Shown one piece after another: positions 25,517 through 63,880 of a stretch of DNA of 64,000 bases (position 1 is its first letter; each line of letters starts with the position of its first letter). The stretch lies in contig CM045763.1 of the NCBI GenBank assembly GCA_025200525.1, forward strand, positions 806,001 to 870,000, written 5' to 3'. The notes under the pieces were generated by a model. It was given only the letters and a program-made list of their open reading frames with translations. It was not told the DNA's origin and ran no database searches. Made by a program: the position numbers and the translations under genes. This DNA comes from Camellia lanceoleosa. Lineage: Eukaryota > Streptophyta > Magnoliopsida > Ericales > Theaceae.

Positions 25517-25519
25517 GAG

Positions 25520-29612: not shown

Positions 29613-32106
29613 TATAACAACCCCGGTCCGCAATTAGCTACTAATTCGTAATTAAGAATGCTAACTAAGTGTTTAGAATGGAATTATGTGTTGTTGTTAA
29701 TTGTGATATGTGCTTTGTAGTAATTTGTGCATATCTATCTGATTTGAAAATTATTTGTCATGATTCCTACTTTGAATCTGAAGTTGTTAGCCTAAATGTC
29801 TTTAGAAACCAAATTGAGCACAAGGGTTGACTAATTAGAATTTTTAGAACCATCTGAAAGGTCTTGTTAAAAACTGATTTAGTTTAGTAAAATCGTATAT
29901 GATTAAATTAAGCCTTAATTGGAACTATTTTTAAATAATTGAATTTTGTGCTAACCTTGACTAATTAAGGTTACTTGTGTTTGATTTAAATGATGCATGA
30001 TTGGTACCTAATCTAATCCTATTAATGATCCAAGATGGGATTAAGTGTTGATGTGCTAAGGCATTTGGTGATATTGAATGTAGAGGATTAAAACTCTTGT
30101 GAGTGTGTTGGATTAATGCATGTGTGTGCACGTGTTTTGTATTCAAATGTGAGGTGTGTGTTGTGTATATTCTGATGAGAGTTGAGGAAGTATTGTACCA
30201 TTCCTTTACTCATGTGGTCCTTGTGTAGAGAGAGAGAGAGAGAGAGAGAGAGAGCTCAAGTTAGAGGAAGAAGAAGGAAACTAGGAAGACCATCTCTTGT
30301 TGTTTGAAATCAAGAATCTAGGTAAGAGTCTTGAGCCTATTTTCTGTAGTTAACCTTCTTTGCATCATGATTTCAACATGTTTTTGAGCTAATTTCATGA
30401 TATTTGTAAGGAAATGGATCTTAGAACATGTAGATGGCTTACATATACATTCATGGTAGACCATCTTTGATTTTATCATGTTGAGTTTGAGTTTTAAAGT
30501 CCTTGCATGCATGTGAGCTTTAATCATGTCCATGGTTTCAGAATTCATGAAGTTATTGATCACCGTTTGCATGTTACGAAAAACCATAAAAGAGTTAAAA
30601 ATGTGTTGCATTAAGAAGTTTTGACTCAAATCTTTCAAGAATTAACGAGTTTTTGAATAAAAGATATTTCAAGGGTCTTGTATTTAAGTTTTCTAAAGCT
30701 ATTTTTGTGTGTTTAATCAAATCATGCAAGACTCCAAGGTTTGAAGGTGGTTTGGAAGCCATTTTTGTTAAGCTTACTGCCTAGAAATTTACAGTTGGCT
30801 CGAGCGAAGAAGTGGTGGCTCGAGCCAACATTTCAAGCTCTTAGAATTTTGAACTCTACAGAAGTTGGCTCGAGCAAAGAAGTCCTGGCTCGAGCGAGCT
30901 CTGTTTTTGCCTTCTGTTGGCTCTAGCTAAGAAAAGCTGGCTCTAGCCACCAACTTGTTTTCAGCATGTTTTCAAAAGATGTTTTATGTACGTATCTTCA
31001 CTCCCATATCTTTATGGGCATTCTTAGGCATGATTTATGAGCCGTTAAAGATTAATAAGCTAAGAAATAACATAAGTAAGTGAATTAGAAAATATGTGTT
31101 GAATCCAGGTATGTGGGCAATATGAACAAGTTATGTAGCATAGAATGAATGGGCAATTAAAGTGAGAAAGCTAGCCGTGTTGGCCACTTGAATGTGTAAT
31201 GATAAGATATGCTTGTGTTATGTATTTTGTGGTTGTAGGTCAAGACTCGAGGGTTGATTGACCATTGCAGGAAACCACTGTGAGTAATGTTATTATAAAG
31301 ATACGTTCATATGAATTACGTTCCAAATGAAATATGATAAGTTCTGATTTCTGAAATGATATATGTTTTCGTGAACGAATATTCCATGTTTGAAATCTAT
31401 TATGGCATCCATAGATAGTCCCAAGTCATGGAGGACGACATGAAAATGCAGGTCCGTGATATATATGTGATTACAAGATCTCGTTAGCCACTTCATTGTG
31501 GTGATATGTGTTTAATCGGTATCCGGAATCGATTACTCTAGCCGGAAGACATTCTGTGATGTGTTCTATGGGTTGTGTCATTATTATGTTCTGATATAAG
31601 AATGATTATGCTCTGGTCTCTTTTCTGCTTATGATATATTCGGATTTTGTTCACTAACCCTTTTACCTTAATGTTACTCACTGGACTTTAGCTCACTGTG
31701 TGTATATATATATATGTAGGTGGACATTCTGGAGTTCGAGCCTGAAGGCTTTTGTTCGAATCTGTGTGCTATTGTCAGCCAACCATTGTGCCTTACGTGG
31801 AGGTTCTTGAAGAGTCCTGTGTTTAAGTTCCCTTGTTTCTGTACATATAAGACTTAGTAGTTTTGTTGGCTATACTTAAGATACTTTAATGTGTATTTGT
31901 ATAATGTATGAATGACTATTGCATACTTATATAAAGTTTTAAATATTCTGTTCATATAAGTCAGCACAGCTCATTGAACAACTATATTTATGTATTTGCT
32001 TCCGCTAGCCCCTTAATCTTGTTAATCTGTTCAGAGGCCTTCTGTAGTCCAAGGATTACTGGCCGGTTACGATGCTAACCTATAGGGGCGGGTTTAGGTC
32101 GTGACA
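29613..32106 (+). repeat. Complete 3' LTR of the family-B element, 2,494 bp
   Basis: Starts tataacaacc (canonical tgtaacaac with one transition in the terminal tg) and ends gtcgtgaca. Length matches the inverted solo LTR of 2,503 bp with the same ends. Contains a (GA)n tract at about 30225-30254 and a paired-palindrome array at 30797-30948. Confidence 0.88.
30797..30948 (+). repeat. Paired-palindrome array, GGCTCGAGCC type (3 pairs)
   Basis: gctcgagc at 30798, 30818, 30868 and 30888, and the variant gctctagc at 30920 and 30940. Each pair has exactly 20 bp between copies. Pair intervals share aagaag. Partners are mutually complementary and could form a hairpin. Confidence 0.9.
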
Positions 32107-32964
32107 GAATGTCAGAGATTAATCTTGATGATGCATTTTGGGATGAGCTCGAGACCATTAATTTAGACGAGATTTTAGCCGAGCACTCCGCCCCCGCCTC
32201 ACCTGGGGAGATTCAAGGGACATAATCAGAGGACTGCACCTAGGCCTTGCCCAATTGTTGGGTCGGCCAATTTATATCCAAGCTGACCCTACCGATGTTC
32301 CATATTTACTGTGGAGGCAAAGCCGTGTCGATACACGCAGACGTTTTATTGGACCCACTCGTGTCCTTGGCGTTGCCCCAGGACATGACCGCTCGCACTA
32401 TATTATAGGCCCTCTACTCACAAATTTTTTGGCCAGAAGGGGAAACGTGTACCCTGAGGACTATATTTTCACCACAGTCCCTAACCCGTTGGAGATAATT
32501 AATATTCAAAATGTTTGACTTTAATAATGACTTGTCATATGTTGAGACACTCGGCTGGATTGTCGATCGAGCATTTTTGGGATACATACAGTCTGTCCCT
32601 ATTTTCACAGTCCAGACAACATGGATGTGTTTTGGTGTAGTCCAGTTGGGATGGGAATTTGAGCTTTTTATGCAACACTATTTCTCATGGTTGTTTGGCC
32701 CATTTGACCCACCACTCTAGATTTGGTATAAGGAAACCTTTTTGTATGCTGACCATGATGTGTTCTGATCCCTTTTTGTTTTTTTTTTTTTGTTTTTGTT
32801 TACCATAGGGATGAGACACTAACATATTATGACTTTTGAAACAAAGATGTAATATTAATTGGAAAAATAGTAAAGTTGGCATTTTACATAGATATAGATT
32901 GTGCTACACATGCTTACATATATATTGTGTTGTGAATGTAATGCCTCGTTTATTACTTTGTAGA
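32107..32964 (+). other. Unassigned stretch between family-B LTR and chromovirus gag
   Basis: A 38-codon frame (MSEINLDDAFWDELETINLD) starts at 32110. An 87-codon frame ending at 32518 contains GRPIYIQADPTDVPYLLWRQ and FLARRGNVYPEDYIF. Base composition is more coding-like than its surroundings, but no family was recognised. It may be leader sequence of the chromovirus or a remnant of another element. A T-rich run lies at 32777-32790. Confidence 0.35.
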
Positions 32965-33957
32965 ATGGCCAATAATAGTAATGGAAGCAAGTCATCAGTT
33001 AATGGCATTGAATCGATGGAAAGAATAATGGAAAGAGCGGTTACTAACTTTTTGCAAGCCTTACAGACTGACATCAGCAATAGGATGCCGGAATGGCGAG
33101 AAAAGCCGGTTACCATCAAACAGTTCCAGGATCTGAAACCCATCACGTTTATCGGCGGCCCAGACCCAATGATAGCAGACGCTTGGGTTAAAGACATGAA
33201 AAATATTTTTCGTGCCCTACCCTGCACCGAAAGACAGAAGGTAACTTTCACTACTTTCACTTTCAAAGACAATGCACAGGAGTAGTGGCTTCTCACTCTG
33301 GCCAAAAAAGAAATTACAACTTGGGCAAGATTCTTGGAAGTATTCTACGAAAAATACTTCCCAGATTCATTGTGGGAATAGAAGGCATCCGAATTCATAC
33401 ATCTAAAGTAAGGAACCATGACGGTGGCCGAATACGATAACAAGTTCACACAACTCCTTCGGTTTGCAACATATGTCATCTCCACCGAAACTCGAAAGGC
33501 AAGAAAATTCAAAGCAGGATTGGATGCTGAAATTAAAGATAGGCTCGAGATCTTGAAATTGCCAACCTATGCAGAAGTGGTAGACCGGGCGTACATTGCA
33601 GAAAAGGGGATTAAAGCCTCGCGTTCTGGGAAACCAAGCCAAAAGAAGTGATTCTAGAAAAAAGACAATAGAAGACCCGGTGTTGCACCTCCTAAAAATG
33701 TGAATACGGGCATAACCAGTTCAGGCCATCAAGGTCCTACCAACCCCCGAGGTGGCACTGTTCCAATTTGTCCCACTTGTGGGAAGGCTCATTGGGGACA
33801 ATGCTATCGAGACACGGGAGCATGTTTTAAATGTGGTCAAGTTGGCCACTTGCTGAGGGATTGTCTAAAATTGGTTAATCCTACAGCCAGCCCCTCTGGC
33901 TCAGTTAGGAAACCCGTAGGACCTGGAAGAGAAAGGAAAGACCAAAAACGTTAAGGA
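32965..33957 (+). pseudogene. gag: Chromovirus gag with in-frame stops
   Basis: Starts MANNSNGSKSSVNGIESMER. The capsid core follows (ITFIGGPDPMIADAWVKDM, then FLEVFYEKYFP, MTVAEYDNKFTQLLRF). The C-terminal zinc region is CPTCGKAHWGQC and a complete CCHC knuckle CFKCGQVGHLLRDC. Stops at 33283, in the E-K motif near 33379, near 33412, and at 33649 all lie in one frame and replace Trp, Gln or Lys codons expected from the family. Confidence 0.88.
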
Positions 33958-34005
33958 CGGGCTTTCACCTTGGTACTTGGAAAACCATAAGTTACCAAAA
34001 ATGTT

Positions 34006-34347
34006 GTGTCAGGTACACTTTCTGCCTGTGGTCATTTAGTTCATGTCCTCATTGACTCTGGGTTAACTTATTCTTTTGTTACACCACACCTTGCTACCAA
34101 GTTGGCATCAACACCCGAACCATTAGGATATATGTTGTCTGTGTCTTTACCTTTTGGTAAGTCTTCTTGTAGTACATATGTGTACAAATCTTGTGCTATA
34201 TTCTTAAAAGGCAAAACCTTATATGTAGACTTGATTCCCCTCCGCATTAGAAACTTTGATATGATCATAGGTATGGATTGGCTGGCTGCCAACCACGTCT
34301 CTATCGATTGTAAAGCCAAGAAGGTCTTCCTCAAGTTACCAAATTAA
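34006..34347 (+). pseudogene. pro: Chromovirus protease region
   Basis: Same frame as gag. Active-site motif HVLIDSGLTYSFVTP (Asp kept; family usually DSGATHSF), followed by FDMIIGMDWLAANH. Ends at a TAA at 34345. Confidence 0.8.
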
Positions 34348-34500
34348 CCCGAACTTGTCTTTGATGGAACTGGAGTTTCTAACCCTCCCTGTATTATATC
34401 CTCCATAACAGCCCAACGACTTCTAAGAAAGGGTTGTGGTAGTTATATTTGTTATGTAATCGATACAAAAAAAGAGGCCCCCACCGTTGATGCAATCCCC

Positions 34501-36032
34501 GTGGTTCGAGAATTTCTGAATGTTTTTCTTGAAGATCTACCAAGTATTCCAGCTGATCGGGAAATAGAATTCACCATTGAAACCCAACCTGGCACGAAAC
34601 TAATATCAAAAGCTCCTTATCGCATGTCGATGACAGAATTGAAAGAACTGAAGACTCAACTCCAGGAACTACTGGACAAAGATTTCATTCGACCTAGTAC
34701 CTCGCCGTAGGAAGCTCCAATATTGTTCGTGAAGAAAAAGGATGGCACGATGAGATTATGCATTGATTATTGGGAGTTGAACAAGGTCACCATCAAGAAT
34801 CAGTACCTTCTACCTCAAATCGATGACTTGTTCGATCAACTTCAAGGCGCCCAAGTATTCTCTAAAATCGACTTGTGTTTTGGCTACCATCAACTAAAAG
34901 TCAAAATGGAAAGCATCGAAAAGACTACCTTCAGAACTCGTTACGGGCACTACAAGTTTCTTGTCATGCCTTTTAGTGTCACAAATGCCCCAGTAGCCTT
35001 CATGGACCTCATGAACCGAGTGTTCAAACTCTATCTTGATGAGTTCGTTATCGTCTTCATTGACGACATCCTCATATACTCCAAGTCACCAGAGGCCCAT
35101 GAGCAGCACTTGCGAACGGTTCTACAAACACTACTTATCACAAACTTTATGCCAAGTTGAAGAAATGTGAATTCTAGATCACTAATGTACACTTTCTCGG
35201 TTACATCATTAACAAAGATGGCATCTCGGTTGACCCTCAAAAAGTTACAGCAATCATGGACTGGCCACGACCTACTTATGTGTCAGAAATCTGAAGTTTC
35301 TTGGGTCTAGCTAGCTATTATCGGCGCTTCGTGCAAGATTTCTCAAAGTTAGGATCACCCTTGACCCAGCTAACTCAAAAGAATACACCCTTCGAATGGA
35401 CTGATAAACAGGAGCATTGTTTTCAAGAATTAAAAAGTCGACTTGTGTCAACCCCTATACTAGCACTCCCTACAGGAGCAGATTGGTTCGTAATCTATAG
35501 TAATGCCTCATACAATGGTTTGGGTTGCGTTCTCATGCAAAACAGAAAATTCATTGCTTATGCGTCGCGACAATTAAAGATTCACGAGAAGAACTACCCG
35601 ACTCATGATTTGGAATTGGCTACAGTAATCTTTGCTCTCAAAATCTGGCGTCATTATCTTTACGGTGCAACCTGCGAGATTTACACTGATCACAAGAGTC
35701 TTAAATATCTGTTCACACAGAAGGATCTGAATATAAGGCAGCGGTGGTGACTAGAATTTATGAAAGACTATGATGTAGAGATCCATTACCATCCAGGCAA
35801 AGCTAACGTGGCAGCAGAAGTACTGAGCCAAAAGACGGCCAGAGGTTTGGCATGTACTCTCGTTTTCTACAAGATTAATGAACTACTCGCCAACATAACC
35901 GTGGAACCTACACTGATTGAAGAAATTAAAGCGTGCCAATGTGAAGATAAACTTTTGAAGAAAAAGTACGATGAACAAAGAAACACGCTTGATCCTGATT
36001 TCACTGTAAGCAATGGGATACTGAAATTTTGA
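34501..36032 (+). pseudogene. pol: Chromovirus reverse transcriptase and RNase H
   Basis: EFLNVFLEDLPSIPADREIEF opens the RT region. [20 protein letters not shown] follows a stop at 34708. [11 protein letters not shown] keeps the catalytic DD. A frameshift near 35130 and a stop near 35173 precede FLGYIINKDGI and [12 protein letters not shown]. RNase H starts [15 protein letters not shown], where the first catalytic Asp (family YSDAS) is Asn, so even a repaired enzyme would probably lack RNase H activity. Ends before the integrase zinc region, which has further stops. Confidence 0.88.
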
Positions 36033-36637: not shown

Positions 36638-39140
36638 TGTCACGACTCAAACCCGCCTCTGTAGGTTTAGCATCGTAACCGGCTAATAATCCTTGAATTA
36701 CCAAAGGCCTCTTGACAGATTAGCATATAATAAGGGGCTGCGGAAGCAAATGTACAAAATATAAATGGTACAATGAGCTGTGACAACATACATAGGACAG
36801 AATAATTTAAAACTTGTATGAACATAAGAGTGACGACCAAAAGATGAAGTATGTACATATTCTTCCCATAAGGGTAATATAGGAAAACCAACCTAACTTA
36901 ACAAAACAGAGTTTAATATGATCACAAAAACAGCCACAAAACAAGACTTCGTCCTGAACCTCCTTGGGAGACGCAAGGGTTGGCTGACAAAAATCGAAAC
37001 GAAGGCCGTCAACTCTAGCCCTGATCACGTGCCGGCCCACCTACATACATAATATAAACAGTGAGCGAAAGCTCAGTGAATAATAACGGAGTAAAGGGGT
37101 TTTAATGAATGAGTCCATACAGATTCAGAAATCACAATCCGTTTTTATAATAAATTCATATTCATATTTTTGTCCAGATAATATACAGAAGTCATAAGTC
37201 TTGCTTAAACATACGTGGTACATTCATTAGCGCTAACAAATGCAGACACATGGTGGTTATGAATAACCAGTTCCATAAAGGAACTTCCGGATTCGGGTAA
37301 CAGAGAATAAACATGCTGAGCCCCATGACGGAGCCTCCGGTACGGGTAACAGAGTGAAGACATATTAAGTTCCATAATGGAACCTCCGATACCGGGTAAC
37401 AGCTAACACATGTCACATGATGCTAAGGATGCCACGAATACATATCAGAAATTGGACAATCATTCATTGTACAGAACATAGCATTTCAGAAAACAAATCT
37501 TATTTCATCATACAGAAGATAAATATAGTTGAACATAGTTTTACTATGTTATTACTCACAGTTGGCTTTGAAGTAGACAGACGGAACAGACTGGTCAAAC
37601 GATATACGGCACGTGACCTACATGACACATAACAGATACACATCTGAAACACACGTTCGAATTGTACATAACTTATTTCGTTTGTTCTTAGTGCGTTTCT
37701 AGCCTTTAATCCTCATTATGGAGTCTTAAACATGGCCTAGAAATGCCTAGGATAGAATGAGGATGCAAAAATGTATTGGAAAACATTTTTCAAAACTTGT
37801 TGAAAATAAGGTCCACGCTCGAGCGTGGCTTTCCTCGCTTGAGCGGACACGCATACAATGAAGCTCTGCTCGAGCATAACTTTCCCTGCTCGAGCGGACT
37901 GCAAACCTTTGAAAAAGTACTGGTTGCATGTTTTTCATGTTCGATGGATGCTCGATACTCGCTCGAGCGTGAGACTCAGACCCTCGCTCGAGTGGACTGC
38001 AAAACACATGAACTTTTGGGTATATGCATTTCACACTCGAGCATAACTCTCAACGCTCGAGCGGAAGTGTATGTACTCAGAGTGAACGCTCGAGCATTAA
38101 GTCCTCCGCTCGAGCGTGGATCAAATTTCTGGAATTTCCAAATTCGATCACCAAGCTCAAATTCAATCTCAAATGCATCAAACTCAATTTTCTGGGCTCA
38201 AAACTTTGGAAAACACTTAGAAACTCATTAAACAACATGTTTAAAGCATTATTTCAACAAATCGTGGCCTAAAAGGATACCAATCGTGCACAAACTCAAC
38301 TTAAACTCTATGAATGTTCCAAAGCATAACATGCATGAACTCTCTTGTACTCAATCTCTTCAAAACATGATCAAACTAGGCAAATTGTTAGAAAACATGA
38401 TGAATTCTCAAAGCATAGATAAAATGAACACATGCATGAAAGAAGTCTTTGAAATCATGCTCAAATTGTGAAGAATGTACATGCATGCACGGATTGATCT
38501 ACCTCTCTACTCCTTAAGCTTGATTCTTACATTTTATAGTTCAATTACTTGAATTCATGTATGAATTATCTCAACTTCAAGGCTAAAGGCTTGGTTTCAT
38601 ACCTTATGTGATCAATTGGGCTTTAGGTGCTAGAATCTTGAACTAGATGAACAAAACTTCAAGTTTTCTTCTTTTCTCCTAGCAATTCCCTCATTGTGAA
38701 TTCAATCCTTGAACCTAGGACCCAAATCCCTCAATTCTCTCTCATTCTCACGTTGAGCACCAAGTTGAGGAAGAAATGAACTGAAAAAATAGACTTAGTG
38801 GGATCAAAATGGCCTTATAGGTAGTAATTAATCAAAATTAATCAAATGGCATTAATTTAATATAATTTAATCATTTCGAACTGAATTTTAATTAAACCTA
38901 CCATAAAATCCTATAAAATCCTAATTAGCACATAAATTAAGTCAATTTTGTAATCGGATGCCGATAAGGCCTTCAATTCGCAAACCGAAACTAGAACGTG
39001 AACAGATCTTCCTTCGCCTAACAGATATAAACACAAACAATGCAACACACACATGCAGTTTAATTCAGAATTTCACCTTAATCACTAATTAGGCATAATT
39101 AATCATGGATTAGCGTTAATCAGAGGTCGGAGTTGTTACA
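36638..39140 (-). mobile_element. Family-B solo LTR, 2,503 bp, inverted, inside the integrase
   Basis: On the minus strand it runs tgtaacaact ... gagtcgtgaca. Flanked by perfect 5 bp TSDs gtgtt at 36633-36637 and 39141-39145. Both ends match the 29613-32106 LTR, but the central part differs. A solo LTR with TSD is the known product of recombination between the two LTRs of one element. Confidence 0.92.
37816..38116 (-). repeat. Paired-palindrome array, CGCTCGAGCG type (5 pairs)
   Basis: Ten 10-bp copies of (C/T)(G/A)CTCGAGC(G/A) or one-base variants, starting at 37816/37836, 37868/37888, 37960/37985, 38034/38054 and 38088/38107. Within-pair offsets are 20, 20, 25, 20 and 19 bp. The first copy extends to ccacgctcgagcgtgg. 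Confidence 0.9.
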
Positions 39141-39892: not shown

Positions 39893-40148
39893 TGTGACAT
39901 CTTGAACTTTTAATTAATACCACATAAATATTTATAGTTATATATAATTGTGAGTATATGTGATAATATATTATTAAATAAATAATAATAAATACAAAAT
40001 CTAATTTGGCATTGGGTTATCAAATATGGAATTAATTAGGAATTATTATTTAGGGCCAAATTAACAGAAATATAGAATTGTAATACTAATTGGGCCAAAT
40101 TAAAGTTAAAGATAGTAGATAAATAAATATAAAAGTAAGAGTAAATAG

Positions 40149-40205
<57 letters not shown>

Positions 40206-45917: not shown

Positions 45918-46365
45918 TGACGCAGCGGAATAAATCACACGAGACTAGATATCGTTCTAGTAGATGAGAATTCTTGAATCCACAAGAATACCCTTGAATC
46001 CATAAGGAAGATAGAAGAAAAGCTCTTTAAAATATTATTGAATGAATAAAAGTTGAATAAATATTGTCTTTGCCATGAGGCTTATATAGCTATTTATAAT
46101 AAACTAAACCTAATACTTGTAGGAAAAGTAATTCTAAAATAAACTAGGAACTTAAATCAACACAAACTAGGAAACCTAAGAGAATAGAAAGCTAAAATTC
46201 TAAACTATTTAAAACCCTAGTCAAAATCTAATTCTAAAATAATAAAATTAAGAAACCTAATAATTCTAAAATATTTATACTAAATTACAAGAATCCTAAT
46301 AAAATAATATATTAAAAATATTAAAACTAAAAATATAAAAATTCTTAAAATCTTGTTCTACATCA
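45918..46365 (-). repeat. LTR of the gag-only element (3' LTR in element orientation)
   Basis: 448 bp, same length as its partner at 47534-47981, with no indels between them by eye. Confidence 0.93.
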
Positions 46366-47533: not shown

Positions 47534-47981
47534 TGACGCAGCGGAATAAATCACACGAGGCTAGATATCGTTCTAGTAAACGAGAATTCTTGAATCTACA
47601 AGAACACCCTTGAATCCACAAGAAAGATAGAAGAAAAACTCTTTAAAATATTATTGAATGAATAAAAGTTGTATAAAAGTTATCTTTGCCATGAGGTTTA
47701 CATAGCTATTTATAATAAACTAAACCTAATACTTGTAGAAAAAGTAATTCTAAAATAAATTAGGAACTTAAATCAACACAAACTAGGAAACTTAAGAGAA
47801 TAGGAAACTAAAATTCTAAACTATTTAAAATCCTAGTCAAAATCTAATTCTAAAATAATGAAATTAAGAAACCTAATAATTCTAAAATATTTATACTAAA
47901 TTACAAGAATTCTAATAAAATAATATATTAAAAATATTAAAACTAAAAATATAAAAATTCTTAAAATCTTGTCCTACATCA
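47534..47981 (-). repeat. LTR of the gag-only element (5' LTR in element orientation)
   Basis: 448 bp; adjoins the primer-binding site at 47520-47531 with a 2 bp spacer. Confidence 0.93.
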
Positions 47982-51935: not shown

Positions 51936-51943
51936 CATGTTAT

Positions 51944-52186: not shown

Positions 52187-52262
52187 TATATATATATATA
52201 TTATATGATTAGATTAATAGGAGATAAGATTTGCTGAAAAATTATTAATTAATCTTGGGACG

Positions 52263-53655
52263 TGTCACGATACAAACTCGCCCCTATAAGTTTAGTATCG
52301 TAACTTGCCAGTAATCTTAAGATTATCGAAGGCCTCTGAAATAGATTAGCAAAATAAGGGGCTAGCGAAAACAAATATCAAAATACAAGGGCCATAAAGC
52401 TGTGTAGACTTATATGGAACATAAAATTTAAACTTATATTTACATATATAGCCGCATCATTCTTACGTCATCCATAACAGATAAAACAAAAAGGACTTAG
52501 CCCTACTACAAATAAACAAAAACTTGTCCAAAAGACGTAAGAAATTAAAAAAAATAAAAATTCTTAAGACTTGTTCAAAGCTTGGTCACAAACATTGCCC
52601 ACTGAAGTTGACCACAAAAAATTTCTAGAACCTCCTCGAGAGGCGCACAAATTGGCTGAAGAACGGAAACAGAAACAGATCCAAACTGGAAATTTCAAGC
52701 CTAGTCACGCGCTTGATCACCTTCATACATAATATAAATAATGAGTCGGAGCCTAGTGAATAACAACAAAGTAAATGTTTTATGAATAATGTTCATAACA
52801 GACTCAGAAATTAGAATTCATATCAGAAACAGATTCATTTACTTATTCAGATTTGTAAACAGTCATATATGGTACATCCATTAGCGCTAATAGATCAAAT
52901 TGGTCATATTCGTTTCAGACAAATGATTGTACACAATCGTAACAGATAACCATATAGGTTTCACAGATAGTTCCATGATTGGAACCCACAGAGATCTATG
53001 GTACCAAGTAACAATAACAGATACTAAGAATGTCACGATTACATTTCAGAGGATTGGACAATCAGTCATTCTAATCAGAAAATAATTTTTCAGAAACAGA
53101 GTATACCATATAATCATAAAGTACTTAAGTACAAATGTACATTTACACAGTTGTTACTCACAAATACCTCTAGAAGCAGAACAGACGGTAACACGTAACC
53201 TACACAAGCACATAATTGATACACATTGAAACACAATTTCTGAATACACTTGTCCTATTACATTTCTTTCTAGGCATGTTTCTAATTCATATCCTCATTA
53301 TTGTGACCTAAACCATGGCTTAAGAATGCCTAGGATGCAACGTGAATACAATTACGCACTTTAAAACACTTAGCAAAATTTCAAAAAACGGGATTGAAAA
53401 TAAAGGGTGGTCATTCGAGCCAACTATTATTCTCTGCAAAACTTCTGAAAACTCGAAATATATGCTCGAGTGATGCGACCAAATTCTAGAATTTCCAAAT
53501 TTTAACTTCAATACCAAAACTCAACTTTAAAGCATCAAAACTCATCCTTTTGAGTCAAAACTTAAGAAAACTCTTAGAAAATCATATAACATCATGAATT
53601 GAAGATCAATTTACAAAATCAAGGCCCAAAAACTTGTCAATTCTCTAAAACCAAG
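52263..53655 (-). mobile_element. Relict family-B LTR, inverted and truncated
   Basis: Begins tgtcacgatacaaactcgcccc, matching the first bases of the 36638-39140 solo LTR, and stays collinear through ggcctctga, tagattagca, cattagcgctaa, ggacaatcagtcatt and aatttccaaattt. Resemblance fades near 53650. The palindrome array is almost gone (isolated tgctcgagtg at about 53463). Older than the other two copies. Confidence 0.75.
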
Positions 53656-53664
53656 TTGAAACTT

Positions 53665-54928
53665 TGATTAAGGCCGAAATGTACATCATTGAGGCCGTTA
53701 ATTAGGATCTCTTAACTTTACTTGCTTGTCAAAATGTATACTTTATGTGTGTTGAATGTCAATCAAGTTGCACGTAGTCGGAGCATAAAATAGGCAAAAA
53801 GACAGAATTTAGAGAGAGTTGACTTTTCTGCACGTGCGTTGACTTTTTTTGGAAAAACGTGCCAGATGTTTTAAACCTGTTTGGAAAGACACCAGAAGAC
53901 GAGGTAGGCCTAGATTAACGTTGACTAGTGTTATAAATAGAGATATGAATCTACTTAATTTGACTAATGAAATGGCCTTTGATAGAGCCGCGTGGAGAAG
54001 AAGGATTCATGTAGCCGACCCCATTTGATGGGACTTAAGGCTTGGTTTGGTTTGGTTTGGTTTGGAAAGACACCAGAAGTATAAATAGGCAAGAAAAAGG
54101 TTGGATTAGGGTTCTGAACTTGTTTTGACAAAAGAGAGAGGCTAGGGTTTGGGAAAGAAAGAAACTTGAAGCTTCAAGCATGTCTCCCATGGTGGCTTCT
54201 TCTCCACCTGCCTCCTTTCACTCATCCATGAGTGGCTAGTCTCCTTTTCTAGGGTTTTGATGAAACCCTAGCCATGTAATAGGTTTTTCTTTTTGGATTT
54301 TCAATTATGTAAAGGTTTGAACACTTGTATGGTGTTTTAGAAGTTTCATATATATATATATATATATATTTTCCATTATTTCTTCAAATATTCAGCTTTT
54401 TGTGATTGTTGAATGTTTTCCATACAAGAGTTTTCTATTCTTTCACATTCAAGGTATGAGACGAATCATACTATGAGAGATGAGTCGTATCACTACCTTA
54501 GTTTAGAGTGAACAATTCGTACTACTTGAGATGGTTCGTGCTCGTACATTGAACGTGATAATTTTCTTATTAAATGCTTTGAACTTGTAGCTACGAAGTA
54601 TTATTCCGTTTGAACCATAACATAATTCTTTTCAATTTGAAAACCCTATTTACGTGACTAGTGGTGGACTCTTCGCCCTAGGTTTTCCCCCAATTCAGTA
54701 AATTCACTTTCAATCATAATTAATAATTTAATTATTTAGTTTAATTTATTCGTTATTAAATTAGGTTATGATCAATCATTCTTTTCATCAAAATTAATTT
54801 AGAAATTTATCAATTAAATTAGTTTAATTTCACAATTGTCCTTGTGGATCGATACCTAGACTTGTCATTATTTTAAAAGAATTTGGTGTAGTTTAATGTT
54901 TATTTTTGGTGTGTTCAACGAAATACCA
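53665..54928 (+). repeat. Probable 5' LTR of the Athila element
   Basis: Left limit uncertain. Contains two gttgactttt segments exactly 20 bp apart (53818, 53838), a TATA box tataaatag at about 54081-54089 and an (AT)n tract at about 54350-54370. Confidence 0.5.
53899..54059 (+). mobile_element. 5'-truncated L1-type LINE fragment
   Basis: A 161 bp insertion ends in the reading frame MAFDRAAWRRRIHVADP, the C-terminus of plant L1 ORF2, and then a ttggt-repeat tail. Identical 20 bp flanks at 53879-53898 and 54060-54079 are the TSD. It sits just upstream of the LTR TATA box. Confidence 0.88.
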
Positions 54929-54934
54929 AAAATT

Positions 54935-54952
54935 TGGCGCCGTTGCCAGGGA
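54935..54952 (+). other. Athila primer-binding site
   Basis: tggcgccgttgccaggga, one base from the common tggcgccgttgccgggga of plant Athila elements. Confidence 0.85.
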
Positions 54953-55479
54953 CTTCTGGCAAAATTAGTTAATTTAAAGTTACATTATTATTTTAATTTT
55001 TAGTTTAAGATTTTATGATTTCGTGTTGCTAAGTGCTCTGAGCGTTTGAAATTGGAACTATCACCGAAGTGCAAGCAGAGCGCAACTGAGCTTTAAAATA
55101 ATAATAAAAAAAACCGCAGCACTAAAGTGCGTAAACAGAAGCAAACACTCGCAAGCAAAGCACTAAAGTGCTAAAAAGCAAGACGAAGCTCAATTAGAGG
55201 TTGGAGACAACATCTACACGTCAAACACCCGCAAGACGAGTAAAGCGTTTTCGTTAAACCGCTGTGAGTATTTCTCTCTTTGGTATTTTGCTTTCATAAC
55301 TTAGTGCACAGAGTCGGAACTTTTTGTGTGTGTGTGGGTAGTGTATGCACGGGCGTCGTTCTTGTCGCCCTAAATTATGGAGTTTGGACCTTGAACTAGA
55401 AATGACTCTTCGGAGACTTAGGGCCTCTGCCCATGTTCCTAGGATTGAGTATTCATATTCATACATTGAGCCATTAGAG

Positions 55480-57950
55480 ATGGCAGATCCAGATGTCCCG
55501 AATGTGCCTAACCGGACCCTTAAGGATTATTTCACACCCACTGCATATACATCACCGTCATGCATCCAATTACCCAACACCACTGCTGCTCATTATGAGA
55601 TTAAGTCCAGCACCATACAAATGCTTCCATCATTCCATGGACTAATTCATGATGATCCTTACAAACATTTGAATGAATTTCTGAAAATTTGCTTGACAGT
55701 GAGCATCCAGAATTTCACAAATGAGGCCTTAATGTTGCGATTGTTTCCATTCTCATTAAAGGATAAAGCCAAACACTGGCTAAATTCTTTACCTGCTAAT
55801 TCAATCACAACTTGGGACCAATTACAACAACGGCTCTTGGAGAAGTACTTTTCCATAGGTAAAACCAACCAACTTAGGCGAGCCATCACAAACTTTGCTC
55901 AAATGGATGGCGAGCAATTCCATAAGACGTGGGAAAGACTTCGAGACCTTCTCCAACAGTGTCCCTATCACCAAGTGCCTGATTGGCAACTTGTTCAAAC
56001 ATTTTATTATGGCTTAACTGAGCCGCACTGCTAAATAGTGGACTCATCCTGTGGTGGGACATTCATGTCCAAAAATGATGCCGAGGCATGACAATTGTTT
56101 AACAACCTAAGTGATAATTCCCTTCATCATGCCTTCGCAGCCCGGCAAGTCCGGCAACCAGTAGTTGGAGCCCCGAAAAGAGGGGGCATTTATGAGGTCA
56201 GGCAAAATCTAGAGTTAGCCCAACAAGTAGAGGCACTGTCTCACAAAATGGACCAATTATTAGCTGCGGGACATGCCCTTACCCAGCAAGATCAGCCTCA
56301 ATTTTACGAGGCATGTGTTATATGTGCGAGCCCTGCTCATGACTTGAGTGAGTGCCCTTCGGCATCACAATTTTCGGAGTTAGTCCAAGAGCATGTGAAT
56401 GCGGCTCAAGGATTTTCCAACCCGGGTAATGATCCATGCTCTAACACATATAATCCGGGATGGAGAAATCACCCTAATTTTTCATAGAGACCTCCTTCAC
56501 AAGGCACTTCTTACAATCCTCCACCACCAAGGTAGAATTTCAATAATTTTGCCAACCAATCATCTTACCGACAATCGCAACCTTATCGACCCCCACAACC
56601 GTACTGGAAACCACAACCCCCGCTTGTTCCTCAGGGCAACTTTGCTTTTAAGACTCAAGTGTTGGAAGTTCTCTCAGAACTTAAGGGATTAGCACCGGTA
56701 GTTCACTCCTACACTCACTCTATTGCCAAGCTAGATGCCCAATTGGGTCAAATGGCTAACAACATGAATCAAAGAGATGAGGGAAAATTACCAAGTCAAA
56801 TTGTGGCCAACCCTAAGGGACAATACGGGGCAGAGGGTTTGGGTGAGAATGGAAAGCACCATGAGCAGGTGCAAGTAGTGATTAGTTTGAGAAGTGGAAG
56901 GGAGTTAGAGCCTCAGTCAGTTGCGTTTGATACAACTAGAGCTAAGAAGGGTGACCACGGCGGTACACCCAATAAGAGCAAGGGTAAGGGGGAAATACTT
57001 AAGACGGATGACTTAGTTCCTAACACTTTACATGAGCCCAAGGCACCATATGTGCCTAAGGTACCCTTTCCCCAATGCCTTGATACACCGTCCCCTTTTA
57101 ATAAGAAAGTGGCATCTATGGAAGCAATGATGGAGGTCTTTAAACAGGTAAAAATCAACCTCCCCCTGTGGGAGGCGATTAAGCAAGTACCCTCCTATGC
57201 CAAATTTTTGAAGGATCTTTGTACGCAAAAGCGTAAATCTAGGACACACGTGTCCCAAAAGGTCTTACTCACAGAGCAAGTAAGCTTCATCTTGTTGAAT
57301 GACACACCTCCTAAGCTTAAGGACCCGGATGCCTCAACCATTGCATGCATTATAGGGGACCATTTCATTGATAGGACCTTGTTAGATTTAGGGGCTAGTG
57401 TCAATTTGTTGCCGTACTCTGTATACAAGGAATTTGGGCTTGGCGAGTTGAAGCCCACTACTGTCACTCTTCAGTTGGCTGACTGGTCCCTCAAAGTGCC
57501 ACGTGGCATGATTAAGGATGTGCTAGTGAAGGTCGATAGGTTTTATTTTCTTGTCGACTTTTTGGTTTTAGATATGGAACCGGTAGCCAGTTCTAGGAAA
57601 CAAATCCCGGTGATCTTAGGTCGACCTTTCTTGGCTACGGCCAATGCATGCATTAATTGTCGTACCGGGGTGATGGAAGTTTCATTTGGTAACATGCAAG
57701 TGAAACTTAATGTTTTCCAAGTATCCCAACAACCCCATGAGAGAGAGGAGTACTTATTTGTGGATGTTGTGGATGAGGTTGTGGAGGAAGTTTTGCCCTC
57801 TATTTTTGTAGAGGACCCTTTAGAGGCTTGTCTAGCTCATTTTGGGTTTGAAAATTTTGATATTGATGGGTTAATTGAGGAGGTGAATGTCTTGCTTAAT
57901 GCTTCGTCTACACTTGATTTTCCTCCGTGGAAAGCCCGATTTGAGTCACT
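55480..57950 (+). pseudogene. gag-pro: Athila gag-protease, with in-frame stops
   Basis: The ATG at 55480 gives MADPDVPNVPNRTLKDYFTP. Capsid motifs: FHGLIHDDPYKHLNEFL, LRLFPFSLKDKAKHWLNSLP, LEKYFSIGKTNQLRRAI. Stops at 56032, near 56089, at 56485 and near 56534 lie in one frame. A zinc-like CVICASPAHDLSECP occurs near 56310. The 439-residue ORF from 56659 holds the protease: active site LLDLGASVNLLPYSVY (catalytic Asp kept) and the ILGRPFLATANA core. The frame is then interrupted by the solo LTR at 57974. Confidence 0.85.
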
Positions 57951-57973
57951 TCCTCTTCTGTCAAGAGAGTCTG

Positions 57974-59951
57974 TATAGCGACCCCGGTCTTTTCTCATTC
58001 GATGTTGTATCCGGACTTAGGCTCCGTAGATTCTATCCTTGTGTAATGGTTGTTGGCATCCTTTAATTCTATTTGGTCGAGTTTTAGGATGTGTTGGGCG
58101 TGTTTCAAACGGTTGGGTTGAGCCTTTGCCTAGATGTTGATTGCCCAGTTTTTAGCCTTTCCGCTCGAGCGGACATTACTGCGCTCGAGCGGGGTTTACA
58201 CTCTTCCAGCATTTTTGGTCCCTGCAAAACTTCTGCAGGTGAGAATTCTACGCTCGAGCGGGTTTTTATACGCCTTTCGGCGAAATTTCAGCGGTGTTGT
58301 TGGCGCTCGAGCGGGTAGTGTGTTCTCCGCGTGGGTTCTGGAATGGGGGAATCTACGCTCGAGCGGTTATCATTGCGCTCGAGCGGACCTTGTTTTTGCT
58401 CTTTACGCTCGAGCGGTGTGTTGTACACTCGAGCGGGCCTGTCGAGTTTAAATACGCAGCAGCGTGTTTTAAAACAGTTTTTCAGCCCCTTTCAGTTTAT
58501 AAAACCCTAGGTTACGAGTTCTCTCTCTCCCAACTCATCTTCTCTCCTAGGTTTCATCTATTTAGAGTGAGTATCTAACCTAGTTCCTTCATTAAAAAGG
58601 TAGAGTGGGTCGAGGGCTTCCATCTAATCTGAACAGTTGTTGATTTGGAGCACTTTGGAGTTTGGGCTATCATCTCCGTCTTCTTCTCTTCGGGTTCTTG
58701 CTTCGAGGTAGGGATTTCCTACTCCATTTATACGCTTTAATCCTAAGTGTTGGTATTTTGGTATGTGGGGGTAGTTTGGTAATTTTGGGAGAAACCTTAG
58801 GGTTTGTTATAGATTAATTCATATAATTAATTTAAGGGAAAATTGTGATAGTGGGTTTAAATCATGAGATTGGGGAACTTAGTGATTTAACTATGTAATT
58901 GAGTAATTTAAATGCTTACTTATGAGAATGATGAAATTTCAGTTGTGTTGTTATATTTATTTCTTGTTTAGGAATAATTGTTTTGGGCTATCAGTGGAGG
59001 ATAGCCATTGATTGTTGTAGACCCTGCATGCTGCTTAGGTATAACTGAAATTGAGTCATTCATCTGACTGTTGAATTAATACAGAATATTCGTGTATGGA
59101 TTATACGTTGTGTATGTCAAGTATTGATTATGTTGCATATGCATTTGGTCTTGGAGGAGATAGGGGATGAACTCCACGGTTTAGGGGAAGATAGGGGATG
59201 GACCTCTAAACCGGATTTGTTGGGAGGAGATAGGGGATGGACTCCAGTAGCATCTCATATGTGGGTGCTTATTGATGATAGAAATATTTCTATTTCTTGT
59301 TATTATGATACATCACCACCATGTGTATCAGATGGGAAGTATGGAAGTGAATTTGATTAAGACTGGTATAACACCAGCATGTGTGTTTATTATATTATAA
59401 GAAAGGTTTAACCTGATTTGTTATCCTTGTTGAGTTGTTTGGCGTGTTCGAGCCATATGCGTGTTAATGGAAAAAAAAAGGTGTAATAGACCTTGTGCCA
59501 TAGACAGTGTAGGCATTCGTGTCAATAAATTGTAAATTGATTATCTTGTGTTAACCATGTATCGTACTCCGCTTTAGTTAATTCTTATGCTTGGTTTAGT
59601 ATTTCTCTCTTTGTGTGGCTCACCCTATATGGGAACTTCATTTTCAGGTTCAGGTGGTTCACTACCTCCAAAGACTTAGCTTGTGAGGATTTGGACATGA
59701 AGACTTGTTTTATTTGTTTTAGTTGTTTTATTTGAATTATGTAAACATTCAAGCCTAGGGCTTTATTTGTTTTGAGTTAGAACTCATGGAATTGTGTCCA
59801 AGTGTTGGCTTGGCAAGATGTAAGCCCATAGGGCATTTATTATGATGTTTTTATCTTATGGTACTCTGATGAATGAAATAAGATACTTTATTTCTTTATA
59901 ACTCCGCATGTTAATATTATGTATTATGGGTTTTTTTTTTAGGACGTTACA
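57974..59951 (+). mobile_element. Solo LTR, 1,978 bp, inside the Athila element
   Basis: Starts tatagcgaccccgg (tg to ta in the terminal pair) and ends aggacgttaca. Flanked by perfect 5 bp TSDs gtctg at 57969-57973 and 59952-59956. The Athila reading frame is continuous across the insertion once LTR and one TSD are discounted. Layout resembles family B, but sequence is different. Confidence 0.92.
58161..58436 (+). repeat. Paired-palindrome array, CCGCTCGAGCGG type (4 pairs)
   Basis: Eight copies of cgctcgagcg (one with ca at its start), at 58162/58182, 58251/58304, 58356/58376 and 58406/58426. Offsets are 20, 53, 20 and 20 bp. The first copy is a perfect 12 bp palindrome. They lie 190-460 bp into the LTR. 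Confidence 0.92.
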
Positions 59952-59956
59952 GTCTG

Positions 59957-60862
59957 CCATACCATCTTTGGTCACACTACCTACACTTGAGTTGAAGCCA
60001 CTCCCGGCCACACTCAAGTATGCATTTTTAGGGTCCTAGGAGACTTTACTAGTCATCATTGCATCTAACTTGACTGCAGAGCAGGAGAGTCAGTTAATGA
60101 GCGTTCTCGTGGCATATCGGAGTGCTATAGGATGGTCAGTGGCTGATTTGAAAGGGATAGATCCCTCTGTGTGCATGCATTATATACACCTAGAGGAGGA
60201 CACCAAACCTTCTTGCGAAATGCAACGGAGACTGAATCCTAATATGAAAGAGGTGGTGAAAAAGGAGGTATTGAAATTGTTGGATGCGGGTATTATATAC
60301 CCCATCTCTGATAGCAAGTCGGTGAGTTCCACACAAGTGGTGCCCAAGAAATCGGGCATCACCGTTGTTGAGAATGAGATATGAGAGTTAGTCTCCACAT
60401 GAACCACTATTGGGTGACGAGTGTGCATTAATTATAGGAAACTGAATTCCTCGACTAGGAAGGATCATTTTCCCTTACCTTTCATTGACTAGATCCTAGA
60501 GCGGTTAGCGGAGTAGGGTTTCTACTGTTTTCTTGATGGCTATTCGGGTTATAATCAAGTCCCAGTGTACCCCGCTGACCAGGAAAATACCACATTCACA
60601 TGCCCTTTTGGCACTTTTGCTTACAGGCGCATGCCCTTTGGGCTATGTAATGCACCGGCAACTTTTCAACGTTGTATGATGGCCATTTTCTCCGATATGG
60701 AGAAGAAATTCTTAGAGGTTTTTATGGATGAATTTTTGGTGTTTGGACCGTCTTTTAAGGAATGCCTTAGGAACTTGACTAGAGTGTTGGAACGATGCAC
60801 TGAGGCAAACCTAATTTTGAGTTGGGAAAGAGCCATTTTATGGTTCGTGAGGGTATAGTGTT
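59957..60862 (+). pseudogene. pol: Athila reverse transcriptase, catalytic motif altered
   Basis: LKPLPATLKYAFLG opens the pre-RT region. Then EVLKLLDAGIIYPISDSKSVS and VVPKKSG, stops around 60382-60515, and CPFGTFAYRRMPFGLCNAPA. The metal-binding motif is FMDEF where the family has FMDDF, so the second Asp is Glu. A frameshift near 60840 joins the next frame. Confidence 0.87.
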
Positions 60863-62894
60863 GCGACACATTGTGTCCCCTCAAGGCATAGAGGAAGACA
60901 AGGCTAAGGTTGACCTCATTGCAGGCCTTCCTCCACCCAATTCCGTGCGTCAAATTATGTCATTCCTAGGGCATACAGGTTTTTACCGTAGGTTCATCAA
61001 AGACTTTAGTAAAATATCACGTCCTTTGTGTAGTTTACTTGTTAAGGACACGCCTTTTATCTTTGATGAGGCATGCTTGAAGGCATTTGAAACACTGAGA
61101 ATGGCCCTGACCACCGCCTCAATCATGAAATCACAAGATTGGTCGCTTTCTTTTGAAATCATGTGTGATGCCTCCGATTATGCTATCGGGGCTGTGTTGG
61201 GCCAAAGGGTCAATAAGGCACCATTTGCTATATACTATGCTAGTCGCACTCTCTCAGATGCACAATTGAACTATATTACTACCGAGAAAGAGTTGCTAGA
61301 TGTGGTCTTTGCCTTAGATAAATTCCGGTCCTATCTCCTAGATTCCAAGGTCATAGTCTTTACTGATCATGCCGCTTTGCGGTATTTACTATCAAAGAAA
61401 GAGACCAAACCTAGGTTAATTAGATGGATTTTGTTGCTCCAGGAATTTAACCTAGAGAATCGAGATAAGAAGGGATCTGAGAATGTGGTGGCGGATCACC
61501 TCTCCCGAATCCTTGTTGAGTATACTAGTGACCCCCTTATTTTACATGATTCGTTTCTGGACGAACAACTCTTTGAGCTGTCACGAGTGAGCCCTCCGTG
61601 GTTTGCACATATTGTGAATTACTTGGCCATTGGACAAATTCCGCAGAATTGGTCTAAGCAAGACAAAGACCGATTTTTTTCGCAGGTTAAGTATTATTTT
61701 TGGGAGGATCCGGAGTTGTTTAAATATTGCTCCGACCAAGTGATCCGACGGTGTGTGCCGGAGAGTGGGGTGCATAGCATTCTTACATTTTGTCATTCTT
61801 CTGCATGTGGCGGTCATTTTAGTGGGCATAAAACAGCCGCTAAGATTTTACAGAGCGGGTTTTATTGGCCCACAATTTTTAAAGATGTCCATCAATTTTG
61901 TAGAACTTGTTTGCGTTGTCAGCAAATGGGTTCGATGTCGCGGCGTGACATGATGCCAATGTCCCCTATTCTTGTGGTAGAAATATCTGATGTTTGGGGG
62001 ATTGATTTTATGGGACCTTTTCCGTCGTCGTTCGGGTTTGAGTATATTCTCTTGGTAGTCGATTATGTGTCTAAGTGGGTGGAGACAATAGCTACCAGAA
62101 CAAACGATCATAGAGTTGTAATCAAATTCTTGCATGAAAACATCTTTAGTCATTTTGGGTTTCCTAGAGCCATAATAAGTTATCAGGGTACACATTTTTG
62201 TAACCAGTTCTTTGAGTCGGTAGTCAAGAAATACTCTATCACTCATAAAGTTGGCACTCCATACCACCCTCAAACTAGTGGCCAAGTAGAAGTCTCAAAT
62301 AGGGAGGTAAAGCACATAATAGAGAAAACGATGAGGCCAGATAGGAAAGATTGGTCACAACGGTTGATTGATGCATTATGGGTCTACCGCACTGCTTATA
62401 AGACACCCATTGGGATGTCACTATATAGGGCGGTGTTTGGCAAAGCTTGCCATCTCCTGATTGAACTTGAACATCGAGCATTGTGGGCCATAAACAAGTT
62501 TAACTTCGATATGGCTATGACTGGGCTCAACCAGAAATTGCAACTCAATGAGTTGGAGGAAATCCGGAATGATGCATATGAGAGTTCGAGAATTTTTAAA
62601 GCTCGAACTAAAGAATTCCATGACAAGCACATTAATAGAAAATCCTTCGAACCCGGCCAAAAAGTGTGGCTTAACTCAAAATTGAGACTCTTTCTGGGTA
62701 AGCTTAGATCAAGATGGGATGGTCCCTTTGTGGTTGTTGAGGCATTTATTCATGGCGCCGTTGAGGTGCAAGATCCAAAGACTGGCCACACTTTCAAAGT
62801 GAATGGCCAAAGACTAAAGCCATATATAGAGGGGATTGGGAATGGGGAAATGATTGAGTCCATTGCTTTGATGGATCCTTTTTACTATGATTGA
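60863..62894 (+). pseudogene. int: Athila RNase H and integrase, open frame with lost catalytic residue
   Basis: A single open frame of about 670 codons ending at 62892. RNase [49 protein letters not shown]. Integrase zinc region: [17 protein letters not shown] with CLRCQQMG. Catalytic domain: GIDFMGPFP, then [11 protein letters not shown] where the family has IISDGGTHFCN, so the second catalytic Asp is Tyr; E is kept in [12 protein letters not shown]-terminus [13 protein letters not shown]. Long but catalytically dead. Confidence 0.9.
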
Positions 62895-63540
62895 TAGATT
62901 GATTTCTTGTTCTCCTTTCTTTCCCTTCTATTCTATTATATTTTTCTTTGTTCTTGTTGTGCTTTATTTGCGTCTAGGAGACTTTAAATCCTCTAAAGGT
63001 GTAATTCCTTTGGTGTTAGTCGTGCCTGAACAACATCTGACGGTCTGGTATAGCCACCTAACCGTGTTTGTGGTGAGTTCCTAGGAGACTAACTGAGACG
63101 GTGGAAACTAGAGTTCGAATGGCAAAGCCTAGAACACAAAGGTTTGGAATTTCCGAAACTAGAGTCTGGTTTAAATACCCAGGGGTGTAGAAATTGCTTC
63201 AAAACTACCTCGGCTTGAACTCTGTGTGGTAGCCCCATAGGTTGAGGTAGCTTTATACGCTTCGATTCTGGATACCGAATCAACCTAGTCTGTCACCCTG
63301 TTGGAGAATAGGGAAAGTTACAAACACAGTTACGGAGAAAAGTAGTACCTGTGGTTTTTGCGTGAAGATTATACCTTCAGTGGGCATTCCGTTATTTTCT
63401 TATGTGCTATATTTATTCCGGATGTCAAATGAAGGTAAAAATGGTTTATCATGCTTTGGGTGGTACTTGGTTTTTAATTTCTTATCTTTAAATTTGTTTA
63501 AAAAAATGTACATATACTTATACATAGAGTTATGCGCTTA
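62895..63540 (+). other. Athila 3' internal region, no gene recognised
   Basis: Sequence between the integrase stop and the palindrome array. Contains two ctaggagact segments (about 62976 and 63080). No envelope-like ORF seen. Confidence 0.4.
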
Positions 63541-63554
63541 AAAAAAAAATCAAT

Positions 63555-63880
63555 CCCGTACGTGCGGCACAATCCACGCACGTGCGGAGAAATTCCCAAA
63601 TAAAAAGTTGCACACCGCTTTAAAAGCAGGTGCGGAAGGTCTATGTGTCAACCAAGCCGCACGTGCGGCTTGACTCCCGCACGTGGCAGAGCGACGTTCC
63701 ACCAAAAAAAAAAAAAAAAAAAAAAAAAGGGCGAGCGAGGAAAATCACCGCACGTGCGGCCCATTCCCGCCCGTACGGGAAATGTTGTGAATTCATATTT
63801 TGCACACTGTTTTAAAAGTAGGTGCGGGGGTGAGTGCGAGGTGTACTACCGCAAATGCGTTGTACACTTCCACACGTGCG
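63555..63880 (+). repeat. Paired-palindrome array, CCGCACGTGCGG type (4 pairs)
   Basis: acgtgcgg at 63560/63580, acgtgcgg and acgtggc at 63661/63681, then centres 63753.5/63774.5 (cacgtg, then cccgtacggg) and 63854.5/63875.5 (an imperfect cgcaaatgcg, then cacgtg). Offsets are 20, 20, 21 and 21 bp. Segments ttaaaagcaggtgcgg (63620) and ttaaaagtaggtgcgg (63812) show the block is itself duplicated. Cores are E-box/G-box palindromes. A poly-A run lies at about 63702-63728. Confidence 0.85.

What the first reader, a model, noticed from the sequence alone, without database searches (positions are those of the whole stretch)
30797..63880. Arrays of paired palindromes with a fixed spacing of about 20 bp at four retroelement loci
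Seen in sequence: 16 palindrome pairs at four loci (30797-30948, 37816-38116, 58161-58436, 63555-63880). Fourteen have partners 19-21 bp apart; the exceptions are 25 and 53. The palindrome differs by locus (GGCTCGAGCC, CGCTCGAGCG, CCGCTCGAGCGG, CCGCACGTGCGG), and spacers share little outside each locus. Constant geometry with changing sequence suggests the architecture is what is kept. Distances between pairs vary. Inference: either dimer-of-dimers protein sites two helical turns apart, or tandem hairpins in LTR RNA. I know of no description of this, but could not search.
Basis: partly seen in the sequence, partly recalled or inferred. Interest (0 to 1): 0.88.

Follow-up and report, generated by a model that had tools for sequence, protein, structure and literature searches.

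The report
Evenly spaced palindromes in plant retrotransposons
Retrotransposons in this 3-billion-base plant genome carry arrays of short palindromes set almost exactly two or three turns of the DNA helix apart, which looks like regulatory DNA built to hold proteins side by side, though no protein has been shown to bind it.

Summary
In detail: 14 of 16 pairs lie 19-21 bp apart, 13 exactly 20. CGCTCGAGCG twice within a 0-30 bp gap: 95,144 places, reversed-pattern control 0; of the 50 listed, 32 are at 20 bp and 15 at 31-33. CGCACGTGCG: 2,081, control 2; 48 of 50 listed at 20-22. TAGATCTA peaks at 21 and 31, but against a high control. CGGWCGWCCG: only 68, mostly at 12/24/36. Three loci are LTR sequence. 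Locus 4 is not: it lies between pol and the 3' LTR of an Athila-like element. The 'pairs' are pieces of a 20/31-bp alternation, so duplication of a ~51-bp unit explains part of the regularity, but not the similar spacing of different palindromes. Best reading: arrays of dimer-binding sites on one face of the DNA near promoters. RNA hairpins are possible but less likely. Nearest precedent: palindromic repeated motifs of Sireviruses; the parts of that paper I read give no fixed spacing. The binding protein, if any, is unknown.

The parts
30797..30948 (+). Locus 1: three pairs of GGCTCGAGC-type palindromes, each pair 20 bp apart; the third pair has CTCTAG in both sites
29613..32106 (+). 3' LTR (2,494 bp) holding locus 1; partial 5' partner at 24930-25521 (92% over 594 columns)
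   Evidence: start and end judged from the terminal motifs
25872..26852 (+). gag reading frame of the element holding locus 1 (Retrotrans_gag, Ty3_capsid)
37816..38116 (-). Locus 2: ten CTCGAG-type sites, four pairs at 20 bp and one at 25
36638..38274 (-). Part of the minus-strand LTR holding locus 2 (its 3' end is at 36638; far end not determined). It abuts an integrase-like frame on the + strand, so it is an insertion rather than that element's own LTR (by eye)
   Evidence: end aligns with the locus 1 LTR end (82% over 180 columns)
52263..53631 (-). Older related LTR copy with a decayed array (one CTCGAG left near 53465)
57974..59951 (+). Solo LTR (1,978 bp) with 5-bp target duplication GTCTG, inserted in an Athila-like element between protease and RT
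58161..58436 (+). Locus 3: eight CCGCTCGAGCGG-type sites, three pairs at 20 bp, one at 53
58498..58504 (+). TATA-like box 62 bp downstream of locus 3
   Evidence: consensus match only
63555..63880 (+). Locus 4: CCGCACGTGCGG-type palindromes, four pairs (20, 20, 21, 20), in the internal region about 660 bp after the pol frame
55342..57975 (+). gag and protease frames of the Athila-like element that holds loci 3 (as host of the solo LTR) and 4
60804..62891 (+). RNaseH and integrase frame of that element (RNaseH before integrase, the Ty3/gypsy order)
53665..54935 (+). 5' LTR of that element (end judged by the primer-site motif); its 3' LTR starts outside the window at L066:8642

Best explanation
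These are arrays of double-stranded-DNA binding sites near retrotransposon promoters. Each palindrome is a site for a homodimer. Neighbouring sites are 20-21 bp (about two turns) or 31-32 bp (about three turns) apart, so the dimers sit on roughly one face of the helix and can contact each other or a shared partner, acting as a cooperative enhancer of the LTR promoter and, at locus 4, possibly of an internal promoter for the ORF downstream of pol. Arrays grow by tandem duplication of a ~51-bp unit holding one pair. Shown: the spacing peaks, their recurrence for different palindromes, the unit structure, the place just upstream of a TATA-like box in some LTRs. Inferred: protein binding, cooperativity, enhancer activity, and any protein's identity.
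For: 95,144 CGCTCGAGCG pairs with 32 of 50 listed at 20 and 15 of 50 at 31-33; control 0. 2,081 CGCACGTGCG pairs with 48 of 50 listed at 20-22; control 2; 40 distinct spacers in 21 clusters. In 200 random kb 25 of 52 gaps up to 60 bp are exactly 20; none of 63 other palindromes of equal GC content exceeds 2. CGGWCGWCCG shows no such peak. Locus 3 ends 62 bp before a TATA-like box and two arrays in L046 lie 22 bp from one. Chains 22-21-22 and 21-21-10-21 suit phased sites. Flanks of the first site of a pair are complementary within the site (z 2.8).
Against: No binding or expression data. Gaps of 37-48 bp, i.e. four turns, are absent, and the best period without the 19-21 gaps is 9.6, not 10.5. 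The arrays of locus 2 and of L050 lie 422 and 275 bp downstream of a TATA-like box, and locus 1 has no TATA-like match just downstream of it. For the second site, within-site flank complementarity is not significant (z 0.9). Genome listings show only the first 50 places, all on contig C1, and copies of one LTR family are not independent.
Confidence: 0.5

Rival explanations
1. Inheritance by tandem duplication: a ~51-bp unit with two palindromes arose in an ancestral gypsy LTR, was duplicated and spread with the elements. The spacing is kept by descent, not by selection on geometry.
For: The gaps 20, 29-33, 49-53 and 69-75 are what a 20/31 repeat with lost sites gives, with none at 37-48. Spacers within locus 1 are clearly alike. 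Locus 2 and L063 arrays are homologous. LTR ends of loci 1 and 2 align. Flanks of the two sites are alike in direct orientation (z 3.8 and 3.2).
Against: CACGTG and AGATCT arrays share the 20-22 bp spacing without sharing the palindrome. Spacers are diverse: 30 distinct in 32, 21 clusters in 50. Exact 20 is kept while spacers diverge.
Confidence: 0.28
2. Tandem RNA or single-strand hairpins: because each palindrome is its own complement, two copies 20 bp apart fold into a 10-12-bp stem with an 8-12-nt loop, used in the RNA (packaging, dimerisation, stability) or in reverse transcription.
For: Eight of eight folded pairs give a hairpin, z -1.6 to -6.2; in seven the stem joins the two palindromes. 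In locus 1 pair 1 the stem is extended by GTTG/CAAC across the pair. Low complementarity in mid-spacer would also suit an open loop.
Against: In locus 4 the best fold lies within one palindrome, not between the two, and 10 of 200 shuffles fold as well. Outer-arm complementarity is not significant (z 1.6) and inner is below chance (z -3.3; z -2.4). Chains of three or four sites and 10-11 bp steps do not form one hairpin per pair. Locus 1 pair 3 changed both sites to CTCTAG in parallel, which breaks two central stem pairs. A 31-bp peak has no reason in this model.
Confidence: 0.13
3. CpG-rich islands: the arrays keep CpG density high for a chromatin role, and the palindromes are a by-product.
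For: CpG observed/expected 1.25-1.39 in loci 2-4 against 0.54-0.66 in flanks. Sirevirus motifs also border predicted CpG islands (PMC2829016, section 10).
Against: Locus 1 has only 0.60 against 0.48. TAGATCTA has no CpG. CpG density needs neither palindromes nor a fixed spacing.
Confidence: 0.06

Closest known systems
Palindromic repeated motifs (RMs) of Sirevirus (Ty1/copia) retrotransposons, PMC2829016 (passages, sections 9 and 10 read)
   Same: Palindromes in many copies, in the LTR upstream of the TATA box, rich in CpG, and again in the linker before the ENV gene, as locus 4 stands before an extra ORF.
   Different: Those are copia elements with a CGG-CCG signature; these are gypsy elements with CTCGAG or CACGTG cores. 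The passages and sections read give no fixed spacing. Some arrays here lie downstream of the TATA-like box.
Repeated activator boxes in the U3 of tobacco Tnt1 and Tto1 (recalled; no call)
   Same: Short repeated protein-binding boxes in the LTR that drive transcription.
   Different: Single families; I recall no genome-wide fixed spacing.
Tandem repeats between pol and the 3' LTR of Retand elements, PMC11963269 (passages read)
   Same: Repeat arrays in the region where locus 4 lies.
   Different: Family-specific tandem repeats; palindromes with fixed spacing are not described in the passages seen.

Membership tests
Sirevirus RM arrays | Host element is a Sirevirus (Ty1/copia) | tested here: not met
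   The element holding locus 4 has RNaseH before integrase and Retrotrans_gag/Ty3_capsid; the locus 1 element has Retrotrans_gag/Ty3_capsid. Locus 2 and 3 LTRs were placed only by LTR homology
Sirevirus RM arrays | CGG-CCG signature in the palindrome | tested here: not met
   Cores are CTCGAG or CACGTG with CCG...CGG outside; CGGWCGWCCG pairs number only 68 in the genome
Sirevirus RM arrays | At least eight copies of a palindrome per element | tested here: inconclusive
   Sites with at most 1 mismatch: locus 1 six, locus 2 ten, locus 3 eight, locus 4 seven; whole elements were not counted
Sirevirus RM arrays | Cluster lies upstream of the TATA box in the LTR | tested here: inconclusive
   Yes for locus 3 and L046; no for locus 2 and L050; none found for locus 1 (consensus only)
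Sirevirus RM arrays | Cluster forms a CpG island | tested here: inconclusive
   CpG o/e 1.25-1.39 in loci 2-4, 0.60 in locus 1; no island caller was run
Sirevirus RM arrays | Extra copies in the linker before the ENV gene | tested here: inconclusive
   Locus 4 and a pair at L066 1548/1569 precede an ORF with a sub-threshold Transposase_32 hit, E 0.0015, 18.9 bits against a cutoff of 45; it is not shown to be env
Cooperative protein-binding arrays (working analogy) | A protein binds the sites and changes transcription | not testable with these tools
   No binding or expression data are held

The most novel reading that the evidence does not exclude
Different gypsy families of this plant have repeatedly built regulatory arrays under one geometric rule (palindromes of any of several sequences, one per two or three helical turns), because related host DNA-binding proteins of differing specificity, or one oligomeric scaffold, work only when dimers line up on one DNA face. 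The spacing, not the letters, is the shared signal.
Probability: 0.25. Interest if true: 0.85.

Novelty: new variant of a known kind. Interest (0 to 1): 0.62.

Why it matters
If the spacing is functional, about 95,000 exact pairs in one genome (a lower bound by the tool's own note) form a very large set of regularly spaced candidate regulatory sites. That gives a handle on how gypsy retrotransposons are switched on, which host proteins they use and what happens to nearby genes. It is directly testable by pull-down and by half-turn insertions.

Tried and rejected
LTRs as the setting of all four loci: rejected for locus 4.

All four arrays from one 30-bp unit: not supported across different palindromes, accepted within array families.

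Generic property of GC-rich palindromes: rejected. Of 63 other 8-bp palindromes of equal GC content in 200 random kb, none has more than 2 gaps of exactly 20, and CGGWCGWCCG behaves mostly as a 12-bp repeat, 43 of 50 listed at 12, 24 or 36.

Relatives in viral contigs: no confirmed hit for either protein query (an RT query; an RNaseH-integrase query). The pattern scan returned 41 contigs; 39 of 41 have more than 50% GC and none was taken for plant DNA. The two at 35% GC (L008, L012) carry one and the same match and were not followed.

Helical period by Rayleigh statistic: all 94 gaps R 0.66 at 10.6; without 19-21 (50 gaps) R 0.48 at 9.6; 0 of 1000 jittered sets as high in either. Not decisive, because homologous arrays were not collapsed and the best period moves.

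CACTA-type subterminal repeats: considered, not tested.

Literature: ten answered searches; none of the titles and abstracts listed describes fixed-spacing palindromes in LTRs. Listings were capped: one search showed 20 of 420, 20 of 39, 20 of 21. Passages of PMC6911290, PMC11963269, PMC11302176 and PMC12016029 were checked and do not describe it. Subscription papers and preprints are not held.

Never answered: CCGCNNNNGCGG and CCGCACGTGCGG with gap 0-30, CGCSNNSGCG, the CGCTGCAGCG control, and CGCTCGAGCG with gap 31-60.
Full report
What was checked. With at most one mismatch to the 8-bp core, 12 pairs are exactly 20 bp apart. Two more in locus 4, with degenerate partners, are 21 and 20 by reading; the remaining two are 25 and 53. 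GCTCGAGC-N12-GCTCGAGC with up to three mismatches matches 11 times in the window (one of them spurious) and never in 100 shuffles. Clustering and spacing are not chance.

Where the arrays lie. Locus 1 is inside the 3' LTR (29613-32106) of an element whose gag is at 25872-26852 and whose 5' LTR survives in part at 24930-25521. Locus 2 lies in a minus-strand LTR whose end at 36638 aligns with the end of the locus 1 LTR (82% over 180 columns) and with an older copy at 52263-53631 whose array has decayed. Locus 3 lies in a solo LTR, 57974-59951, flanked by GTCTG on both sides and inserted between protease and RT of an Athila-like element (the Athila label is recalled from gag and primer-site features, not from a call). 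Its array ends 62 bp before a TATA-like box. Locus 4 is not in an LTR. The next 9 kb (L066) show the element's 3' LTR starting at L066:8642 by match to 53665 onward. Locus 4 is therefore internal, about 660 bp after the pol frame, ahead of a CT-rich leader-like stretch (by eye), a further CACGTG pair at 21 bp (L066 1548/1569) and an ORF with a sub-threshold Transposase_32 hit. A nested insertion carrying locus 4 is not excluded.

Genome-wide test. The window's assembly has 2,999,249,670 bases in 790 contigs. From its size and the ten contig lengths seen (131-226 Mb), a tea-like genome is my guess; it was not tested. CGCTCGAGCG twice with a gap of 0-30 bp: 95,144 places; pattern read backwards: 0. 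The tool lists only the first 50 places, all at the start of contig C1: distance 20 in 32, 31 in 6, 32 in 8, 33 in 1, and 21, 23 and 25 once each. CCGCTCGAGCGG with gap 5-12: 3,681, control 0, listed 49 of 50 at 20 and one at 21. CGCACGTGCG with gap 0-30: 2,081, control 2, listed 33 at 21, 8 at 22, 7 at 20, 1 at 19, 1 at 13. TAGATCTA with gap 0-30: 1,653 against a control of 1,352; listed 28 at 21, 6 at 20, 9 at 31, 4 at 9-11, 3 elsewhere; the high control weakens this third case. CGGWCGWCCG, the class closest to a published Sirevirus motif: 68 against a control of 46; of 50 listed, 22 at 12, 17 at 24, 4 at 36, 7 elsewhere, none at 20 or 21. The tool warns that counts are lower bounds.

Unbiased sample. 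In 20 random 10-kb stretches (200 kb), consecutive GCTCGAGC sites (at most 1 mismatch) give 52 gaps up to 60 bp; 25 are exactly 20 and 10 are 31-32. The best of the 63 other palindromes of equal GC content reaches 2 at exactly 20. GCACGTGC has 5 of 9 gaps at 21-22.

Shape of the lattice. Over the window, L042-L044 and L046-L065, 94 gaps fall at 20 (42), 29-33 (20), 49-53 (10), 69-75 (6) and elsewhere (16), with none at 37-48. This is an alternation of 20 and 31, a ~51-bp unit with one pair; lost sites give 51 and 71. Duplication of that unit explains part of the regularity. Homologous arrays, such as locus 2 and L063, were not collapsed. The values 20-21, 31-32 and 51-52 are near 2, 3 and 5 helical turns, but 4 turns is missing, and a period fit without the 19-21 gaps is best at 9.6. 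Helical phasing is suggested, not proved.

Protein sites or hairpins. On 44 pair units with spacing 20, complementarity across the spacer is below column-shuffled chance (z -3.3), outer arms are not significant (z 1.6), flanks within the first site are complementary (z 2.8; second site 0.9), and the two sites' flanks are alike in direct orientation (z 3.8 and 3.2) (homologous units not collapsed). A second set of 32 listed genome spacers, 4 of which are also among the 44, repeats the low complementarity (z -2.4). Hairpins are nevertheless predicted in 8 of 8 folded pairs (z -1.6 to -6.2), in seven of them between the two palindromes, and an open loop would also give low complementarity. Chains (20-20; 22-21-22; 21-21-10-21) and the parallel change of both sites of locus 1 pair 3 to CTCTAG argue against paired hairpins.

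Comparison with what is known. Sirevirus repeated motifs (PMC2829016; passages and sections 9-10 read) are palindromic, multi-copy, upstream of the TATA box, CpG-rich, and recur in the linker before ENV. The resemblance in working is strong. Membership is not: the elements are Ty3/gypsy where domains could be read, and the CGG-CCG signature is absent. No fixed spacing is given in what I read of that paper, and none of the titles and abstracts listed by the ten searches named under Tried and rejected reports one.

Verdict. The finding is real, far larger than the window, and partly explained by unit duplication. A spacing shared by palindromes of different sequence is the new element. Mechanism: most likely cooperative dimer-binding sites, at even odds.

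Noticed in passing
L057:3326-3450 and genome places: Arrays of TAGATCTA-type palindromes with steps of 10-11, 21 and 31 bp; the kind of element that holds them was not determined.
   Followed up: partly
L047:2098-2200, 3976-4070, 8719-8815: Three clusters of GGCCGGCC palindromes with steps of 17-31 bp in one random 10-kb stretch; the third lies about 50 bp before a CCTATAAAG box (by eye).
   Followed up: no
L063:6115-6290: An LTR end (TGTCACGACCC) directly abuts a CACGTG array with steps 22,21,22,48,21,21, as if inserted at its edge.
   Followed up: no
genome places: CGGTCGACCG and CGGACGTCCG recur every 12 bp, a minisatellite-like repeat unlike the 20/31 lattice; the window has a 12-bp repeat ACCGGTTGGTCA at 12399-12441.
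   Followed up: no
L026:1615-3010 (IMG/VR contig): A viral contig with several blocks of a 20-bp tandem repeat that contains GCTCGAGC; probably coincidence.
   Followed up: no
window 10293-14058: A long inverted repeat: 10293-10934 against 13408-14058, 83% over 662 columns, with further repeats inside.
   Followed up: no
window 2909-3751: Minus-strand frame with an RRM domain (RRM_1, E 5.4e-07), a likely host gene fragment.
   Followed up: no
window 45918-46365 and 47534-47981: Direct repeat, 95% over 448 columns, flanking a 1.2-kb interior; not identified.
   Followed up: no
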